Shown here: in pieces, positions 53,307 to 61,297 of the stretch
Numbering within the stretch: position 1 is the first letter of the stretch
How the letters are laid out: each line of letters begins with the position of its first letter
From: an uncultured Flavobacteriaceae bacterium
GTDB taxonomy: Bacteria > Bacteroidota > Bacteroidia > Flavobacteriales > Flavobacteriaceae
Length of the DNA stretch: 64,000 nucleotides
Assembly (NCBI GenBank): GCA_937944485.1
Contig: CALDYU010000003.1
Coordinates: 246,852-310,851 of the forward strand
Reading direction: 5' to 3'
Position numbers and translations under genes: made by a program
Notes under the pieces: model-generated
Told to the model about the DNA's origin: nothing
Database searches by the model: none
Seen by the model: the letters and a program-made list of their open reading frames with translations, nothing else

Positions 53307-53396
53307 GTTAGGAGTTAGGAGTTAGGAGTTAGGAGTTAGGAGTTAGGAGTTAGGAGTTAGGAGTTAGGAGTTAGGAGTTAGGAGTTAGGAGTTAGG
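53306..53396 (+). repeat. tandem heptamer repeat, 13 perfect copies of AGTTAGG
   Basis: Thirteen uninterrupted, identical 7-base units fill the whole spacer between the panB stop (whose last A begins the first unit) and a point 11 bases before the lspA ATG. Because 7 is not a multiple of 3, TAG appears in all three forward frames. Each unit has a GG pair and a TTAGGAG stretch resembling a ribosome-binding site. Confidence 0.98.
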
Positions 53397-55200: not shown

Positions 55201-55226
55201 CAATAAACACACCAGTGTGTTTATTG
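55201..55226. terminator. AT-rich palindrome at the left edge of the cassette-like array
   Basis: CAATAAACACAC/GTGTGTTTATTG around a central CA is a perfect inverted repeat, ending four bases before the first array junction at 55231. It may be the terminator of the DUF4252 gene (no long T-run follows) or part of a primary attachment site. Confidence 0.4.
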
Positions 55227-55230
55227 TATT

Positions 55231-55240
55231 GTTGTAAGCA
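55231..55240 (+). other. left junction of cassette A (GTTGTAAGCA)
   Basis: GTTGTAAGCA is the exact reverse complement of TGCTTACAAC at 56176-56185, the start of the site behind the same gene. The match continues with one mismatch for three more bases. Confidence 0.65.
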
Positions 55241-55292
55241 ATTAAACCAAACCAGATAAAAAGAGTCTAAGCTGAAAATAAATTAATAAAAT

Positions 55293-56135
55293 ATGAGAAA
55301 TCTATTTAAATTATTTACAGTAATCCTCTTGTTTTCATGTAGCAAAAATGAAGAACAGATTAACCCAGATACTCCTCAAGAACAGGTTAATCAAGATGCT
55401 CTTGTGTCAGCTTTTTTTGGACTTGATAATGCACTACCAAGTCTATTGTGTAATCAACTAGGAAGCCTGTTAGATGGTATGCCTATTAATTTTAAATTTC
55501 CATTAGATGCATCCAGTTTATCGGAAACTGATTTTGAAGTTGTAGATAGCCTTGGAAATAAACACATCCCAATGTGTGCTCTTTTAGCACCAGCTAATGA
55601 AAATGGAGAAAATCGAACAGTGCTATTGATAGGTGAGTTTGGAACCGCTGTTACAAATCCACCCGTTGAGGTAAGAATTGTGGGGGATTTATTTACAACT
55701 GATACTTTTTCAGGAGAGTCCACTTGTTCAGAAATCCTAAATCTAAATGGAATCACTACCACGAATGTTATTCCGCTCGCTGATGGCCCAAGTCTATTTT
55801 TTGCCCAAAAAATTGATGGTACTCTGAATGAATGTAGTTCAGGAACACAAACGATTCAAGTTGCATGGAATGGTGGCATTACACCTTTTATAAGTGGTGA
55901 TACCGAATCTGACTTATTTCAATACTATATTGGTTATTCTGATAGTTCGGGAGTTCTAATTCCACATGTACCTATTTCGATAGCAGATATAAATGACAAC
56001 GACAACTTTCATCAACTTTGTTTTTCTACAAGTGATGAAATTGTTAAAATTTCAATGATGGCTAACACGGTCGAAGACCCAAACCAAGACCCAAATTTAT
56101 ACAGTGAAATTGATGTTAGTTCCTGCACTCCTTAG
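55293..56135 (+). CDS. cassette A: hypothetical lipoprotein
   Basis: No family recognised. A 280 aa protein with a lipoprotein signal (MRNLFKLFTVILLFSC, Cys at 16) and an acidic Asn/Gln-rich linker (SKNEEQINPDTPQEQVNQ). The beta-rich body has two repeats of an FPLDASSLSETDFEVVDSLGNKHIPMCALLAPANENGENRTVLLIGEFG type, recalling Ig-like or cadherin-like strands. Four Cys in the body could form disulfides. It starts 62 bases after its junction, the longest leader among the cassettes. Confidence 0.75.
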   Translation: MRNLFKLFTVILLFSCSKNEEQINPDTPQEQVNQDALVSAFFGLDNALPSLLCNQLGSLLDGMPINFKFPLDASSLSETDFEVVDSLGNKHIPMCALLAPANENGENRTVLLIGEFGTAVTNPPVEVRIVGDLFTTDTFSGESTCSEILNLNGITTTNVIPLADGPSLFFAQKIDGTLNECSSGTQTIQVAWNGGITPFISGDTESDLFQYYIGYSDSSGVLIPHVPISIADINDNDNFHQLCFSTSDEIVKISMMANTVEDPNQDPNLYSEIDVSSCTP

Positions 56136-56175
56136 ACAAGAATTGAAGAGAGCCTTCAAGTTAGTAAAATATAAC

Positions 56176-56313
56176 TGCTTACAACAATGGCTAAAATTCA
56201 TTGCTTGCGGATTTCCTAAACGGAAATCACGCGCAAAAAGCTATCTTTAGGTTCTGCTGGATTGTCCTTCGGACGAATCACAGCAACGAACCTTAGCCGA
56301 ACCGTTGGCAACA
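56176..56313 (+). repeat. cassette site 1 (attC-like palindrome, variant family)
   Basis: Outer box TGCTTACAAC (56176-56185) and 3' core GTTGGCAACA (56304-56313). Inner arms GGCTAAAATTCATTGC (56189-56204) and GCAACGAACCTTAGCC (56283-56298) pair at 13 of 16 positions; all three mismatches are A opposite C. Spacers between boxes are 3 bases on the left and 5 on the right. Two internal hairpins, GATTTCC/GGAAATC (56210-56228) and GTCCTTCGGAC (56264-56274), lie within. Confidence 0.65.
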
Positions 56314-56334
56314 AGCTAAAAAATCGCATGTAAG

Positions 56335-56751
56335 ATGAAAATACATACAACGAATTACCAAAACACATTCATTGAAATTGCGGAAGATTGTCCAGTAAAT
56401 ATAGCGGAAGTTCCGCCCATGAAAGGAGATAAAAAATCAGTAGCTAATAGGCAGTTTGAAATGTTGGACAAGAATCCTTATAAGTATACTTCTGATGATG
56501 TTTTTTTCCAAGTCTTTGCTGACAGAAAGGATTTAACAAAAAGCGAATATCAAAAAGAACGTGAAAAGTTCTTCTCAAAAGGACAACCGTGTTTCCGTGC
56601 CTCTCCTTTGACTAAAAGGTATGGATTTGGGATTCATTGTAATGAAGATGGTAAGATTGCAATGTACGGAGCAGAAACGCAAGAATATTCCAAATTTGTT
56701 GCGGACAAAACAATTAAAAAAGTAAAAGCAATGCGTTCTAAAAAAGCGTAA
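56335..56751 (+). CDS. cassette B: DUF6157 family protein
   Basis: A 138 aa cytoplasmic protein matching DUF6157: MKIHTTNYQNTFIEIAEDCPVNIAEVPPMKGDKKSVANRQFEML, DDVFFQVFADRKDLTKSEYQKEREKFFSKGQPCFRASPLTKRYGFGIHCNEDGKIAMYG, and a basic end. The family is small and uncharacterised. The ATG lies 31 bases after the junction at 56304, leaving little room for a separate promoter. Confidence 0.8.
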   Translation: MKIHTTNYQNTFIEIAEDCPVNIAEVPPMKGDKKSVANRQFEMLDKNPYKYTSDDVFFQVFADRKDLTKSEYQKEREKFFSKGQPCFRASPLTKRYGFGIHCNEDGKIAMYGAETQEYSKFVADKTIKKVKAMRSKKA

Positions 56752-56759
56752 AAAAAGCC

Positions 56760-56961
56760 AGTTGCCAACAAAACCTATAAACAATACGGGTTTCGGGCTT
56801 GACAGAAAGGTTTGTGTATTTTAAAAATGTCCGCAAAATCTTTGGGATTTTGCTTTAAACAAGGAAAAGAAAAAACAAAACCAAAAGATTTCACTATGTG
56901 CGTGGCGGAAAGCAAACGCTGGTTTGCTCCCGTACTGTTCATAGCTCAACCGTTGGCAACA
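56760..56961 (+). repeat. cassette site 2 (attC-like palindrome)
   Basis: Outer box AGTTGCCAAC (56760-56769) and 3' core GTTGGCAACA (56952-56961). Inner arms CTATAAACAATACGGG (56775-56790) and CCCGTACTGTTCATAG (56929-56944) pair at 14 of 16 positions with two A-C mismatches. Central hairpin GCAAAATC/GATTTTGC. The site is closely similar to site 3 over its whole length. Confidence 0.7.
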
Positions 56962-56967
56962 ATTTAA

Positions 56968-57660
56968 ATGAAAAACTGGATTTACATAATAGTTGGACTT
57001 TTGAGCCTAAATCTATCCGCTCAAATCATAAAAGATGACACGCACTTGGACTTAGATTTTTTCAAGTTTAAGAATGAGTTATTAATAAGTGTTATGGAAA
57101 AGGACACAACAAAGTTAAAGTCCTTGCTTGCGGACAGAGTTTTTGAAAGTAATAACGGTTGTGGATACCCTGGCTGCTCAAAAGAAGAGTTTATTGAAAT
57201 GTATTTCAAAAATCAAGTTAATGATGATACTTGGAATGACCTTTTGAAAATAATTCGATTTGGATTTGCTAGAATTGAAGACCAAGACACAAAGGTTGGA
57301 GTACCTCATGAAGAAATAGTTTTTCAAGGACCTTCATACCATAGAAAAATTAAGACAGGCGATGAAATTCTTATTCTCGGAGAAAATGTAAACATTAGAG
57401 AGAAACCGAGTCTTAATGGAAAAATCATTAAAACATCATCTTTTGAGATATTCAATTGTGATTGTAACATTACAACAATGAAAAAATCTACATATCAAAA
57501 AGTCGATGGTATTGATTGGCTCGAAATCAAGTTGGGAAATGGAAATTATGGTTATGTCTCTGCCAATTTAACCTCCTATAATTTGATAAAAGAATTAACT
57601 ATAGGCAAAGTAAATGGGGAATGGAAAATAGTTTCCTATTTCAATCCGCCGGGGTGTTAA
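56968..57660 (+). CDS. cassette C: secreted SH3-domain protein
   Basis: A 230 aa exported protein. Signal peptide (1-18, LLSLNLSAQ), an alpha-beta region (about 20-125, DTTKLKSLLADRVFESNNGCGYPGCSKEEFIEMYF) and a bacterial SH3-like domain (about 130-200). The SH3 part contains GDEILILGENVNIREKPSLNGKIIKTSSFEIFNC and DGIDWLEIKLGNGNYGYVSANL. SH3b domains bind cell-wall or peptide ligands. The gene starts 16 bases after the junction at 56952 and ends four bases before its own site. The function is unknown. Confidence 0.78.
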   Translation: MKNWIYIIVGLLSLNLSAQIIKDDTHLDLDFFKFKNELLISVMEKDTTKLKSLLADRVFESNNGCGYPGCSKEEFIEMYFKNQVNDDTWNDLLKIIRFGFARIEDQDTKVGVPHEEIVFQGPSYHRKIKTGDEILILGENVNIREKPSLNGKIIKTSSFEIFNCDCNITTMKKSTYQKVDGIDWLEIKLGNGNYGYVSANLTSYNLIKELTIGKVNGEWKIVSYFNPPGC

Positions 57661-57664
57661 AAAC

Positions 57665-57868
57665 TGTTGCCAACAAAACCTATAAACAATACGGGCTTCA
57701 GGCTTAATCGCCGGGTTTGCGTATTTTTATGAAGTCCGCAAAATCTTTTGGATTTTGCTTTTTAGCGGGACAAAGAAAAAAAGAAAACCAAAAGATTTCG
57801 CTAAGTGCGTGGCGGAAAGCAAACGCCAGTTTGCCCCCGTACTGTTCATAGCTCAACCGTTGGCAATA
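57665..57868 (+). repeat. cassette site 3 (attC-like palindrome)
   Basis: Outer box TGTTGCCAAC (57665-57674) is the exact reverse complement of the start of cassette C (56952-56961). 3' core GTTGGCAATA (57859-57868) opens cassette D. Inner arms at 57680-57695 and 57836-57851 are identical to those of site 2. A central hairpin GCAAAATC/GATTTTGC lies at 57738-57758, and AAATCTTTTGG can instead pair with CCAAAAGATTT further on. Confidence 0.72.
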
Positions 57869-57885
57869 ATTAAATCTCGTTCAAA

Positions 57886-58296
57886 ATGAATGAAATATTA
57901 AAAATTCTTGAGAATAGAAACCTCTACACTCATCTGATTCTATTTAAAATTTATCTGTCCACGAGAGGAAGAACTGACACTTTTTTTCAAGGTGATATGA
58001 GAAAAGATTTTAAAGAACTTTTTGGCGAAGAATTCAGTCGAGAAGATTATCAACTCGCTGAACATTATTTAGAAAGCGAAGGTTTGACTCAAAATTTCTC
58101 AAAGAGACTGACAAACTACGGAAGAGATTATTTTGAAAGATGGGTAACGGATTTTGTAAATCTAAACTCGGAAGAAACACAGATCTTAGAAACTGAATTA
58201 CCACCGAAAGTTTTTGATTTTTTTGGATTCACAGATAAAGCAACTAAAATATTAGATTTTGTAGTAAAACTCAAAGAAGTTTTTCCTGACGCATAA
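57886..58296 (+). CDS. cassette D: hypothetical protein
   Basis: No family recognised. A 136 aa mostly helical, cytoplasmic protein (MNEILKILENRNLYTHLILFKIYLSTRGRTDTFFQGDMRKDFKELFGEEFSREDYQLAEHYLESEGL and NYGRDYFERWVTDFVNL). The middle resembles a winged-helix-like arrangement, but no DNA-binding motif can be named. It starts 27 bases after the junction at 57859; its codon use looks like that of the other cassettes. Confidence 0.7.
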   Translation: MNEILKILENRNLYTHLILFKIYLSTRGRTDTFFQGDMRKDFKELFGEEFSREDYQLAEHYLESEGLTQNFSKRLTNYGRDYFERWVTDFVNLNSEETQILETELPPKVFDFFGFTDKATKILDFVVKLKEVFPDA

Positions 58297-58308
58297 GAAA
58301 GGAAAAAC

Positions 58309-58595
58309 TATTGCCAACACAACATCTAAACAATACGGCTTCAGACTTACCTGCCAACAGGCAGGATCGAAATGTTTGTGTATTTTTATGAAGCCTGCCG
58401 ATAGGCAGTTCCGCAAAATCTTTTGGATTTTTGCTCAGGACAGGAAAAAATAAATCAAAACCCGTCCGAACTTACCCGTTCGGTACGGGTGGGCAAAAAA
58501 GATTTCGCTATGTGCGTGAGGGAAAGCTGCCAGCGCTTCAACTCGCCCGCTGCTTCGCAGACGGCGTACCCCGTACTGTTCATAGCTCAACCTTG
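58309..58595 (+). repeat. cassette site 4 (attC-like palindrome with small hairpin insertions)
   Basis: Outer box TATTGCCAAC (58309-58318) is the exact reverse complement of the cassette D start GTTGGCAATA. Compared with site 3 it is longer by several palindromic insertions: CCTGCCAACAGGCAGG (58350-58365), CCTGCCGATAGGCAGT (58394-58409) and a CCCGTCCGAAC/GTTCGGTACGGG hairpin (58461-58490). The 3' end reads CAACCTTGTATG, lacking the G of the usual CAACCGTTGG, so the junction at about 58593 is degenerate. It fills the 314-base gap between the two genes; no gene is seen in it. Confidence 0.65.
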
Positions 58596-58610
58596 TATGT
58601 CATTTAGAAA

Positions 58611-59264
58611 ATGAAAGTCGGAATAAACAACATCTTTACATCATTTTTGTTTTTCATCATTCTTCTATGTAGCGGAATGTTGACCTATTTCTCGTTCATT
58701 GAAAATATATTTACAAATGATTTATTTTTTGCTGGCAAAATTATAATGGGATTTATGATTCTACTTTTTATTAGCACTTTTTTGTACTTACTCTATAAAA
58801 TCAGAATTATTATCATCAAAAATAACATCATAGTTTCCATACATCCGTTTTTAATGAAAAAAGTTAAAATGGACTTGTCTAAAATCAAGAGGGTAAAACT
58901 TAAAAATTGGACCGCGCAAAATGGTACTGTTTATAAAAGAGTTTCATTAAACTACTCAAATTCAAAACTTACTTTTACAGATAGAGAATTTGAAAATTTT
59001 GATGCTTTAATTAATGAAATACCAAATATCAACAACAAACGAGAAAAAATAGATTACGAACAAGCGAAATCAAATTTGTCAACTATAAATCTCTCTGTTT
59101 ATTTGCTTTCAGGTTTTCTTGTATTTATAGTATTGCATACAATTTGGACCAATGGTTTTAACTTTGTAGTTCTTTCGATCTTTGTTTGTGCTGCTATTTT
59201 ATTAATTGCTTCGATTGACAGAAAGCTAAGGTATTCGAGAATAATAAAAACGGCACATAGCTAA
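58611..59264 (+). CDS. cassette E: hypothetical membrane protein with PH-like middle
   Basis: A 217 aa protein. Two N-terminal membrane helices (about 10-32 and 42-65) are followed by a soluble region (about 68-130, KNNIIVSIHPFLMKKVKMDLSKIKRVKLKNWTAQNGTVYKRVSLNYSNSKLTFTDREFENF) with the strand pattern of bacterial PH-like domains. Two C-terminal helices (about 155-200) complete it. No family is firmly recognised. It starts about 18 bases after the degenerate junction at 58593. Confidence 0.7.
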   Translation: MKVGINNIFTSFLFFIILLCSGMLTYFSFIENIFTNDLFFAGKIIMGFMILLFISTFLYLLYKIRIIIIKNNIIVSIHPFLMKKVKMDLSKIKRVKLKNWTAQNGTVYKRVSLNYSNSKLTFTDREFENFDALINEIPNINNKREKIDYEQAKSNLSTINLSVYLLSGFLVFIVLHTIWTNGFNFVVLSIFVCAAILLIASIDRKLRYSRIIKTAHS

Positions 59265-59400
59265 ACGTAATGCCGGCATCAAGCGAATTATCGAGCGAAA
59301 CTAAAACCAAGCGATAGTCTGTTTTTCGAACGATAATTATAAGATTTTGTTATATTTCCTTAAAAATCGTAGAACTGTGTTTGGCAGACCATTAGCAACA
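59265..59400 (+). repeat. cassette site 5 (diverged)
   Basis: Begins AGCTAAACG and ends ATTAGCAACA (59391-59400), which match as reverse complements only over the six bases GCTAA/TTAGC plus neighbours. An internal inverted repeat AATTATCGAGCGAAA (59286-59300) / TTTCGAACGATAATT (59324-59338) pairs at 13 of 15 positions. It belongs to a different sequence type from sites 2-4. Confidence 0.4.
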
Positions 59401-59408
59401 AGCAGTGA

Positions 59409-59846
59409 ATGAATAATAAGTACTCAGACATATTGAAGTTGGCGCGAATCCAAATGGCAGTCACTATTGTATTTATTTTTTTTAAATTTATCCGACCACC
59501 AGTTTTACAAAGTAATTCACCTGAAATATTTAAAATAGTACTATTATCACTACCAAATTTCTTCGAAGCAATAATCGGTGTTTTAACAGTGACGGGGATA
59601 GGATTAGTAATAAACGGACAATTGAATAAAAAGTATGCAATGACAGCGAACTACATCTATATACTGACCGCAGTACTTGCTGGAATTTATGTCATATTTC
59701 AAGAGCTGAATATCATTAAGATTAGGACGAATACCACAATGGACCCAAATGACATAATTTTCTCAATTATTGGATTAATAGTCGGTTGTTTGTTTATCCA
59801 ACACATTAAACCTCAATTTCCTGGTATAAGAATGGATGTTCAATAA
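59409..59846 (+). CDS. cassette F: small four-helix membrane protein
   Basis: No family recognised. A 145 aa protein with four membrane helices (about 14-30, 44-68, 76-98 and 115-135) and short loops (RPPVLQSNSPEIFK, NGQLNKKYAM, IIKIRTNTTMDPND). It resembles many small integral membrane proteins of Bacteroidota without a known role. It starts 18 bases after ATTAGCAACA. The matching box behind it, TGCTAAC at 59860-59866, is complementary over six or seven bases. Confidence 0.68.
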   Translation: MNNKYSDILKLARIQMAVTIVFIFFKFIRPPVLQSNSPEIFKIVLLSLPNFFEAIIGVLTVTGIGLVINGQLNKKYAMTANYIYILTAVLAGIYVIFQELNIIKIRTNTTMDPNDIIFSIIGLIVGCLFIQHIKPQFPGIRMDVQ

Positions 59847-59933
59847 AGATAAAGCCAACTGCTAACAATTTGTATAAGTAATAACAATTTAAGTAATAAA
59901 AAGAAAGTATAAACATTGACCTAACTACCGGAA

Positions 59934-60518
59934 ATGACTGAAATCAAAATACCATTAAGTAAGACGAAAATCATTTTACTTATGATTGGTGCTTTAGCAT
60001 TTGTCATTGGAGGAATTTTTGGAGTTTTAGATGCGGAAAGATTTGCTTCTACTCTTTATCCCAATAACCTTGTCTTTTACGGCGGATTAGCTGCTGTATT
60101 ATTCTTTGGACTTTGTTTTGTGTTTATTGCTAAAAAAGTTTTCAGCGATAAACCTGGATTGACTATAAATGAGAATGGAATTATTGACAACTCGAATGCA
60201 ACGAGTATAGGACTTATCGAATGGAATGATATAATTGAAATAGAAACGATTCAAATTAATGTTCCCGTTTATGGTACAATGTGGACTACTAAATCACCAA
60301 AAATGTTGATTATAAAAACAAGTAACCCCGAAAAATATATTAAACGCTCAAAAAATATTATTTCGAAAAAAGCAATGGAAGCGAATAACAAAATGTATGG
60401 AACGCCATTGACAATAATAGCGAATAGCTTAAAAATTAAGTTTTCGGAATTGGAAAAAATGATTTCGGAACAGTTAAAAAAACAGAAAAATAAAAACGTG
60501 TTACAACAACTTTTATAG
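59934..60518 (+). CDS. cassette G: STM3941-like membrane protein
   Basis: A 194 aa protein resembling the STM3941 family. Two membrane helices (about 12-34 and 47-68) are followed by a PH-like soluble domain (about 75-190, PGLTINENGIIDNSNATSIGLIEWNDIIEIETIQI, TKSPKMLIIKTSNPEKYIKR, GTPLTIIANSLKIKFSELEKMI). The function is unknown. The upstream junction is not recognisable (no GTT core before the gene), so F and G may have been fused into one unit by loss of a site. Confidence 0.75.
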   Translation: MTEIKIPLSKTKIILLMIGALAFVIGGIFGVLDAERFASTLYPNNLVFYGGLAAVLFFGLCFVFIAKKVFSDKPGLTINENGIIDNSNATSIGLIEWNDIIEIETIQINVPVYGTMWTTKSPKMLIIKTSNPEKYIKRSKNIISKKAMEANNKMYGTPLTIIANSLKIKFSELEKMISEQLKKQKNKNVLQQLL

Positions 60519-60633
60519 TTCATTGCCTCTGAAATTCCCTTCGGAATTTCTTCGCTACCAAACAATTGGGTTTCGACTTATTTGCTATCTTAAGCATCAC
60601 GTAATGAAAGCTTACACGAACACGTTGTGCTTT
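60519..60633 (+). repeat. cassette site 6 (GTTGTGC type)
   Basis: Ends in GTTGTGCTTT (60624-60633), which opens cassette H. It contains a perfect hairpin GAAATTCC/GGAATTTC (60531-60550). Its left box does not pair clearly with the start of the preceding gene's unit. Confidence 0.45.
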
Positions 60634-60666
60634 ATTATGACAAAATTTTCGAATTGGAGTTAATAA

Positions 60667-61158
60667 ATGGAATTAAACGAAGAAAAAGACATTGAGATTC
60701 TGAAAAACGGACCAATTTGCAAATATTTCAAAAACGGAATTCTTGACGAAGATTTGAATTGGTTTAATAACAATAATTTCGAAATTATAGAAATGAATTG
60801 TCGGAATTGGAATCGCAAAAACATTCATAAAAATTTGAAGGTTGCTCTTAGTTTTCCAGATTATTATGGCGAAAACTTAAACGCTTTTGCCGACTGTTTG
60901 AATGATATGTATAACAAAAGATACAGAGGACTGATTTTAGTATTTAGGCGTTATGATAATGTTGTAGAAGAAGATGGAAAATTTGCGGAAGCAATACTAG
61001 ATATCATTGCAAAAGAATCTCGAGTTTGGCTTCTGACTGGCAAAAAATTAATAGGACTTATACAATCAGACGACCCGCACTTGCACTTTCCTGCAATTGG
61101 TGGAACAAGCCCACGTTGGAATGGAAATGAATGGCTGAATGAAAACAGAAAAAAATAA
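60667..61158 (+). CDS. cassette H: barstar family protein (orphan immunity protein)
   Basis: A 163 aa protein with the barstar fold. The signature FPDYYGENLNAFADCLNDMY (about residues 63-82) forms the ribonuclease-binding helix and loop. The earlier strand NNFEIIEMNCRNW and the later strand YRGLILVFRRYD also fit. An N-terminal extension of about 25 residues and a C-terminal stretch (HFPAIGGTSPRWNGNEWLNENRKK) go beyond the roughly 90 aa of classical barstar. Barstar binds and blocks barnase-type RNase toxins; no such toxin is encoded nearby. It lies in a GTTGTGC-type unit (60624 to 61161). Confidence 0.85.
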   Translation: MELNEEKDIEILKNGPICKYFKNGILDEDLNWFNNNNFEIIEMNCRNWNRKNIHKNLKVALSFPDYYGENLNAFADCLNDMYNKRYRGLILVFRRYDNVVEEDGKFAEAILDIIAKESRVWLLTGKKLIGLIQSDDPHLHFPAIGGTSPRWNGNEWLNENRKK

Positions 61159-61160
61159 CG

Positions 61161-61297
61161 AAGGCACAACAATACGCGTAATTCACAACTAAGTTGACTA
61201 ATGGCTTCTCGGGCAATCCTATCAGGTTTCCCAAGATCAGTCTCTTTTTGCTAACTTTAATCCAAACGTAACAAGCCCCAGAACAACGTTGTGCCTT
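61161..61297 (+). repeat. cassette site 7 (GTTGTGC type)
   Basis: Left box AAGGCACAAC (61161-61170) is complementary to the cassette H start GTTGTGCTTT in nine of ten positions (the tenth a G-T pair). The right core GTTGTGCCTT (61288-61297) is an exact complement of the same left box. Inner arms are not clear by eye. Confidence 0.55.

What the first reader, a model, noticed from the sequence alone, without database searches (positions are those of the whole stretch)
55231..58318. Unit starts and the boxes behind them vary together, cassette by cassette
GTTGTAAGCA (55231) pairs perfectly with TGCTTACAAC (56176). GTTGGCAACA (56952) pairs with TGTTGCCAAC (57665). GTTGGCAATA (57859) pairs with TATTGCCAAC (58309). 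GTTGGCAACA (56304) pairs with AGTTGCCAAC (56760) at nine of ten. The two ends of a single site match less well: site 1 has TGCTTACAAC on the left but GTTGGCAACA on the right, and site 3 has TGTTGCCAAC but GTTGGCAATA. Thus the sequence variant travels with the gene, exactly as expected if a circular cassette was opened between G and TT. Ordinary repeats or homologous exchange do not predict this.
Basis: seen in the sequence. Interest (0 to 1): 0.95.

Follow-up and report, generated by a model that had tools for sequence, protein, structure and literature searches.

The report
Integron-like array of self-tagged cassettes
These marine bacteria carry arrays of gene cassettes in which each gene has a matching pair of end tags and some turn up nearly identical beside different neighbours; each cassette is likely inserted as a DNA circle by an integron-like enzyme that lacks a domain described as essential in known integrons.

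Summary
With sites called by a model that never sees the variable boxes, the two boxes of one unit agree at 6.09 of 7 variable positions (85 of 99 units at 6 or more), the two boxes of one site at 2.86, like random pairs. In further arrays: 143 of 148 units against 11 of 155 sites. Copies of a cassette sit in different neighbourhoods and stay identical from TT to G. The window array starts at an attI-like palindrome whose twin follows a tyrosine recombinase gene on another contig of the genome. That enzyme resembles integron integrase IntI but lacks the IntI insertion. Sites are predicted bottom-strand hairpins with fixed G.T wobbles and occur in 129 of 149 family and 90 of 198 class genomes, where canonical IntI is rare. 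Reading: an integron-like platform, a sister type to IntI integrons. It works like an integron but fails the IntI definition. Recombination itself was not tested.

The parts
55203..55233 (+). attI-like site: palindrome ATAAACACAC-CA-GTGTGTTTAT (55203-55224), then TGTATT and GTT at 55231
   Evidence: Near-copy of the palindrome that directly follows the integrase stop on contig C33 of the same genome (L037:6124 on)
55232..56304 (+). Unit 1 (TT to G): start box 55231-55240, ORF 55293-56135 (280 aa, no Pfam match), end box 56176-56185, site body 56183-56306 (124 nt)
   Evidence: boxes 10/10
56305..56952 (+). Unit 2: start box 56304-56313, ORF 56335-56751 (DUF6157), end box 56760-56769, site body 56767-56954 (188 nt)
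   Evidence: boxes 9/10
56953..57859 (+). Unit 3: start box 56952-56961, ORF 56968-57660, end box 57665-57674, site body 57672-57861 (190 nt)
   Evidence: boxes 10/10
57860..58592 (+). Unit 4: start box 57859-57868, ORF 57886-58296, end box 58309-58318, long site from 58316 whose right end reads ACC-TTG at 58590 (the G before TT is not there)
   Evidence: boxes 10/10; model matches only 58374-58461 weakly (E 0.31)
58593..61170 (+). Distal, decayed part: ORFs 58611-59264, 59409-59846, 59934-60518 and 60667-61158 (barstar family), with degenerate boxes, best pair GTTGTGCTTT (60624) / AAGGCACAAC (61161), 9/10
   Evidence: no site called here by the model up to E 0.01; suggestive only

Best explanation
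The window holds an integron-like array in which each gene carries its own recombination site, and each unit is likely captured as a circle at an attI-like site by a tyrosine recombinase encoded on another contig of the same genome. Shown by sequence: the attI-like palindrome with GTT; units running from TT to G; sites built as R''-L'' ... L'-R'; R boxes that vary between units and are complementary within the unit; near-identical cassettes in different contexts; the recombinase gene directly upstream of attI and array in relatives. Inferred: in the free circle the bottom strand folds so that the cassette's own R'' pairs with its own R' (about 12 pairs, one usually a G.T wobble), the recombinase joins it to attI within GTT, and after insertion R'' faces the next cassette's R' and pairs poorly. 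The box match is then a memory of the last circular form, and losing that helix would favour insertion over excision. Also inferred: strand choice is set by fixed G.T wobbles on the bottom strand, and the window array, which has attI but no integrase, is served in trans.
For: Within-unit against within-site matches in two samples (detector-independent). Cassette copies identical from TT to G beside different neighbours. attI-like palindrome plus GTT after the integrase in 30 of 38 closer loci, 1 of 17 distant ones; a called site downstream in 20 of 23 closer loci with 1.5 kb or more of DNA. Site hairpin: 96.0% of 784 cells paired, 199 two-sided changes, 0 of 500 shuffles as high on these two and on the covariation score, slid versions 33-48%. 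Polarity: top-strand mismatches A.C 142, G.T 3 in 76 sites; one G.T pair in 53 of 53 sites. Catalytic residues R235, K260, H324, R327, H350, Y359 present (role assigned by alignment). One ORF in array direction in 134 of 148 cassettes. Predicted circle hairpin more stable than array hairpin in 140 of 145, mean 5.7 kcal/mol.
Against: No recombination was tested. 14 of 99 units and 5 of 148 match at fewer than 6 positions. 8 of 38 closer loci lack a clear palindrome plus GTT by my rule and 3 of 23 (L074, L091, L100) lack a called site. In the covariation count, two of five measures (pairs with two-sided change, further pair types) are not above shuffles (238 and 464 of 500). Only 78 of 129 site-bearing family genomes have the integrase at E 1e-60 and 4 of 20 site-free ones do. 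The 53 cassette pairs are 7 groups, 22 of 23 copies in or near one genome, 45 pairs from one ten-copy cassette. The stability difference follows in part from the matching itself.
Confidence: 0.88

Rival explanations
1. It is an ordinary IntI integron that search tools miss: the enzyme is a divergent IntI and the sites are ordinary attC.
For: Same layout; first PDB match of the predicted enzyme is integron integrase 2a3v; IntI plus cassette enzymes as one clade is not rejected (p-AU 0.543); NCBI names some of these proteins 'site-specific tyrosine recombinase/integron integrase'.
Against: No IntI insertion: 25 residues where IntI4 has 67 (alignment with four IntI). Below the IntI cut-off in six of six and in all 59 genomes. 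IntI forms its own group (99). GTTRRRY in 4 of 99 starts. The site model has no match in 42 stretches (343 kb, partly overlapping) around canonical IntI genes.
Confidence: 0.08
2. Each unit is a transposon whose 10-nt boxes are terminal inverted repeats, inserted between copies of an unrelated repeat.
For: Perfect 10-nt inverted ends around most units.
Against: Identity between copies continues past the end box through the whole site to the G; no transposase in the units examined; ends differ from unit to unit (71 distinct start 10-mers among 99 units); site and unit alternate regularly.
Confidence: 0.01
3. The arrays arise by homologous exchange between dispersed repeats, and the boxes match for an mRNA reason such as 5'-3' pairing or termination.
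For: Sites are long, repeated and form hairpins; genes lie in one direction.
Against: Joints of copies fall at cGTT, not anywhere in the repeat; the wobbles favour the bottom strand, which is not the transcript of the genes; within-site matches are at random level.
Confidence: 0.03

Closest known systems
IntI integrons (class 1-3, Vibrio superintegron)
   Same: Integrase beside attI, array of mostly one-ORF cassettes in one direction, sites with AAC and GTT ends and R''-L''/L'-R' inverted repeats, crossover within GTT, predicted bottom-strand hairpin, R' tail supplied by the next cassette (canonical facts from passages of PMC2727003, PMC3053210, PMC3518468, PMC2674596)
   Different: Enzyme lacks the IntI insertion and has an extra N-terminal part of about 100 residues; GTTRRRY in 4 of 99 starts; fixed G.T wobbles and no conserved extrahelical base seen in the L helix; many sites near 188 nt, where canonical ones are 57-142 nt (PMC2727003, passage)
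Treponema integrons
   Same: Integrase reads toward attI and the cassettes, as here (PMC3607928, passage)
   Different: These carry intI proper (paper's term); enzyme and sites were not compared here
Xer recombinases (XerC/D, archaeal XerA) and CTX-phi integration
   Same: Catalytic core without the IntI insertion; XerA profile NF040815 over its cut-off for three of six enzymes; CTX-phi also uses a folded single-stranded site (PMC4792948, passage)
   Different: Apart from 15 of 17 Xer rows in the tree; beside its own attI and cassette array

Membership tests
IntI integron | Tyrosine recombinase gene next to attI and the array | tested here: met
   30 of 38 closer loci with attI-like palindrome plus GTT; called site downstream in 20 of 23. 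For the window array itself the gene is on another contig
IntI integron | IntI-specific insertion (additional domain, I2) | tested here: not met
   25 residues against 67 in IntI4; absent in four cassette enzymes aligned with four IntI; six of six below the TIGR02249 cut-off
IntI integron | Array of cassettes with one ORF each, same direction | tested here: met
   134 of 148 cassettes with an ORF of 60 aa or more in array direction, 3 reverse, 11 none
IntI integron | attC with R''-L'' and L'-R' forming a bottom-strand hairpin | tested here: met
   Pairing and covariation, bottom-strand wobble bias; structure predicted, not measured
IntI integron | R' consensus GTTRRRY | tested here: not met
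   4 of 99 starts; GTT itself is kept. PMC2727003 (passage) limits strict conservation to AAC and GTT
IntI integron | Conserved extrahelical bases in the L helix | tested here: not met
   Only 3 of 53 sites have a base in the one insert column of the 5' arm; the rest of the helix is continuous in the alignment
IntI integron | Cassette excision and insertion by the integrase | not testable with these tools
   Needs an assay; sequence footprint only
Xer chromosome-dimer recombinase | Groups with XerC/XerD of the same genomes | tested here: not met
   15 of 17 Xer rows lie across a branch with 99 SH-aLRT; two long-branch rows labelled Xer (L172, L182) fall on the other side
Xer chromosome-dimer recombinase | Match to the Xer profiles over cut-off | tested here: inconclusive
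   XerA profile NF040815 over cut-off in three of six; XerC and XerD profiles below in six of six
Transposon with terminal inverted repeats | Copies identical up to the repeats and no further | tested here: not met
   Last 13 nt before the next TT identical in 53 of 53 pairs, beyond the end box

The most novel reading that the evidence does not exclude
Bacteroidia have a second kind of integron, widespread and overlooked. Its recombinase branches beside IntI without ever having had the I2 insertion, a living stage between Xer and IntI; its cassettes carry private end tags that pair only in the free circle, which makes insertion easier than excision; and strand choice is written in invariant G.T wobbles instead of extrahelical bases.
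Probability: 0.5. Interest if true: 0.93.

Novelty: new variant of a known kind. Interest (0 to 1): 0.86.

Why it matters
The insertion in the catalytic domain of integron integrases is described as essential for integron function, though not fully conserved in their subgroup (PMC8138268, section 7 read), and as a 20-residue domain that accommodates extrahelical bases and had not been identified elsewhere (PMC4792948, passages). A cassette system of this size without it would show that cassette capture does not need it, and would make the step from Xer-like enzymes to integrons testable. It would also open a large pool of mobile genes: sites are called in 129 of 149 sampled genomes of the family, whereas an IntI-based survey reported one complete integron in Bacteroidetes proper, in Salinibacter ruber M1 (PMC9024848, passage). 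Ten cassettes examined in one genome include a ParE toxin family member and defence-system proteins.

Tried and rejected

Rows chosen or dropped: the site model was built from 53 of 74 sites, thinned by hand. One search used 112 of 135 matches (dropped: 3 cut or partial; 20 weaker than E 2.5e-4, among them top-strand shadows and short sites such as L037:8272). One search used 155 of 156 (one cut at a contig end). The 14 units under 6 of 7 were kept; some come from boundaries that I missed or mis-picked (the attI start of L049; the short site in L037). Tree: 5 of 37 cassette integrases left out for internal stops (L056, L079, L080, L091, L101), 2 of 32 IntI candidates for want of a fitting frame (L148, L150). 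Literature: no listed title or abstract start describes this system; the library holds open-licence PMC only, no preprints, and most lists were cut at 15 or 20. PMC8352920 and PMC7370490 do not contain 'Bacteroid' or 'Flavobacter'.
Full report
OBSERVATION. All eight boxes are at the given places. Within units they match 10/10, 9/10, 10/10 and 10/10; within the three sites 6/10, 9/10 and 9/10. On its own the window is thin: 10-mer pairs at 9/10 or better that are not tied to sites are as common in shuffled sequence (mean 9.7 in 30 shuffles) as in the window (9). The claim needed anchored sites and many units.

WHERE THE ENZYME IS. The site DNA has further copies in the same genome, one about 3 kb from a tyrosine recombinase gene on contig C33. 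After that gene's stop come ATAAACACACTAGTGTGTTTAT, CGTATT and GTTGTACAAC, then cassettes whose boxes differ from unit to unit (GTTACCCACA, GTTACCTGTA, GTTAGCTACA) and recur, complementary or nearly so, at the end of the same unit. The window array begins with nearly the same palindrome at 55203, behind a gene whose family (DUF4252) I name from recall, and one search finds only one such integrase in the genome. Of twelve relatives of the genus with that gene, an attI-like palindrome with GTT follows it in G006 and G009, one without GTT in G010, and by eye none in the other nine.

RELATED LOCI. The 375-residue enzyme has relatives in 67 loci of named genomes, among them Maribacter, Zobellia, Flagellimonas, Aquimarina, Salegentibacter and Marivirga. 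Among 38 loci at 56% identity or more (150 residues or more, to the C-terminus), 30 have a strong palindrome with GTT within 16 nt behind it; of 17 more distant ones, 1 has. Of 23 closer loci with 1.5 kb or more of downstream DNA, 20 have a called site. Contigs L061 and L081 end exactly at the GTT of attI, as expected if the next base varies in the sequenced population; that reading is inference.

THE TEST. Model R1 was built from 53 sites running from AAC to GTT, so the variable boxes lie outside it, and run over 78 loci. Of 99 units in 27 loci, 85 match at 6 or 7 of 7 variable positions (mean 6.09); of 112 sites, 7 do (mean 2.86); other units of the same array average 2.79. For the same end box the unit beats the site 89 times, ties 5, loses 5. 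These genomes may include species of the first sample. Position 11 is a standing mismatch on the top strand, A in the start opposite C by the end box, hence T.G on the bottom strand, in 71 of 85 well-matched units of the first sample and 127 of 143 of the second.

MOBILITY. In the second sample 53 pairs of whole cassettes are at least 96.6% identical. They are 23 copies in 7 groups (one with ten copies, which alone gives 45 pairs), in genome G027 except one pair in G483. In 52 of 53 pairs the first 12 and last 13 nt agree; the downstream neighbour differs in 52 and the upstream one in 45. The one exception (L222) has the same body and end but another start tag. The shared letters at the joints are mostly cGTT, so the crossover cannot be placed more finely. 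G027, a single-contig genome, has 55 called sites over 59 kb beside an integrase that is 37% identical to ours. Of 148 cassettes 134 carry an ORF of 60 aa or more in array direction, 3 in the reverse, 11 none. Cargo in the cassettes examined includes ParE, Gp49-family and SDR proteins and matches to the defence models PtuA, HerA and PDC-S59.

THE SITE. The L helix has 15 pairs: 96.0% of 784 cells pair, 199 cells show change on both sides, slid versions pair at 33-48%. Three of five measures exceed all 500 shuffles; the number of pairs with two-sided change and of pair types do not (238 and 464 of 500 as high). The scanner that first chose the sites scored every mismatch alike, yet mismatches in 76 sites are A.C on the top strand 142 times, G.T on the top strand 3 times, other 26. 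In the alignment G.T fills 108 cells on the bottom strand and 4 on the top strand, and one such pair is in 53 of 53 sites. The sites share ancestry, so these counts are not independent. Predicted folding is stronger on the bottom strand in 59 of 76 sites; in equally long stretches just upstream in 19 of 76. With its own start the predicted hairpin is on average 5.7 kcal/mol more stable than with the next cassette's start (140 of 145, 4 equal; 145 of 148 cassettes could be used). I infer an insertion bias; it follows in part from the matching itself.

THE ENZYME. It stays below the IntI cut-off (206.7 against 265 bits for the own-genome enzyme; six of six below) while the XerA profile is over its cut-off in three of six. 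Against IntI4 (2a3v) the part between the two matched blocks is 25 residues instead of 67, and an alignment with four IntI shows the insertion absent. The first structural match of its predicted model is nevertheless 2a3v. In a quick tree of 79 proteins IntI is one group (SH-aLRT 99), the cassette enzymes another together with one row labelled Xer (94), and 15 of 17 Xer rows lie across a branch with 99. Long branches make this unsure; IntI plus cassette enzymes as one clade is not rejected (p-AU 0.543). Whether the insertion was gained in IntI or lost here is open. About the first 75 residues are predicted as a separate alpha/beta domain without a firm relative.

DISTRIBUTION. Sites: 129 of 149 family genomes (at most 17 candidates scored per genome); 90 of 198 class genomes, 65 of 121 genera (at most 13 scored). 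Integrase at E 1e-60: 82 of the same 149, namely 78 of 129 site-bearing and 4 of 20 site-free ones (Fisher p 0.0012); many site-free genomes are small, which may confound this. Canonical IntI over the cut-off: 93 of 345 genomes of the phylum, but of the 85 listed genomes of the window's own class only G094 (19 genomes without a match are not listed there), and none of 59 relatives. R1 has no match up to E 0.1 in 42 stretches around canonical IntI genes.

KNOWN AND NEW. That cassettes open at GTT and that the R' tail of an attC comes from the next cassette is known for integrons (PMC3518468, PMC2674596; passages). The canonical consensus is GTTRRRY/RYYYAAC (PMC3053210, passage), though PMC2727003 (passages) limits strict conservation to AAC and GTT and names one extrahelical G as the determinant of strand choice. 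Here GTTRRRY holds in 4 of 99 starts and I see no conserved extrahelical base in the L helix. Bacteroidota are named among integron-bearing phyla (PMC8618304, PMC9668308; passages), and integron-like recombinases without a full insertion are mentioned in PMC8138268 (section 7), so relatives of this enzyme may have been seen before. I call it a new variant of a known kind: it works like an integron and fails the IntI definition at the insertion.

Noticed in passing
L106, L109, L110, L112, L113 (isolate 3-1814-Z), around the match ends given: Short C-terminal remnants of the integrase, most followed by an attI-like palindrome and GTT or a near-GTT, on several contigs of one genome: scattered copies of attI with a piece of the gene.
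   Followed up: partly
L072 and L078, just after the integrase: Two attI-like palindromes in tandem before the first GTT.
   Followed up: no
L061, L081 (contig ends); L118: Contigs end exactly at the GTT of attI, or one base after it (L118), which may reflect mixed first cassettes in the population.
   Followed up: partly
Own genome: L038, L039, L040, L041, L042, L044 and C18:137259, C19:343: Single or paired sites of the same type away from any integrase, some with several hundred bases of cassette between them.
   Followed up: partly
G450:C12:102484-103275(-) beside the array of L220: A more distant integrase relative lies divergent to a large array, the layout usual for IntI integrons.
   Followed up: no
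Phylum sample: IntI over the family cut-off in 93 of 345 genomes of the phylum, almost all outside the window's class; no clear attC arrays seen around 12 of them with my scanner.
   Followed up: partly
L217:2495-3772(-) in the G027 array: A cassette that itself encodes a phage-integrase-family protein.
   Followed up: no
window 53307-53396: Tandem repeat of the 7-mer TTAGGAG between the panB-like and lspA-like genes (names recalled).
   Followed up: no
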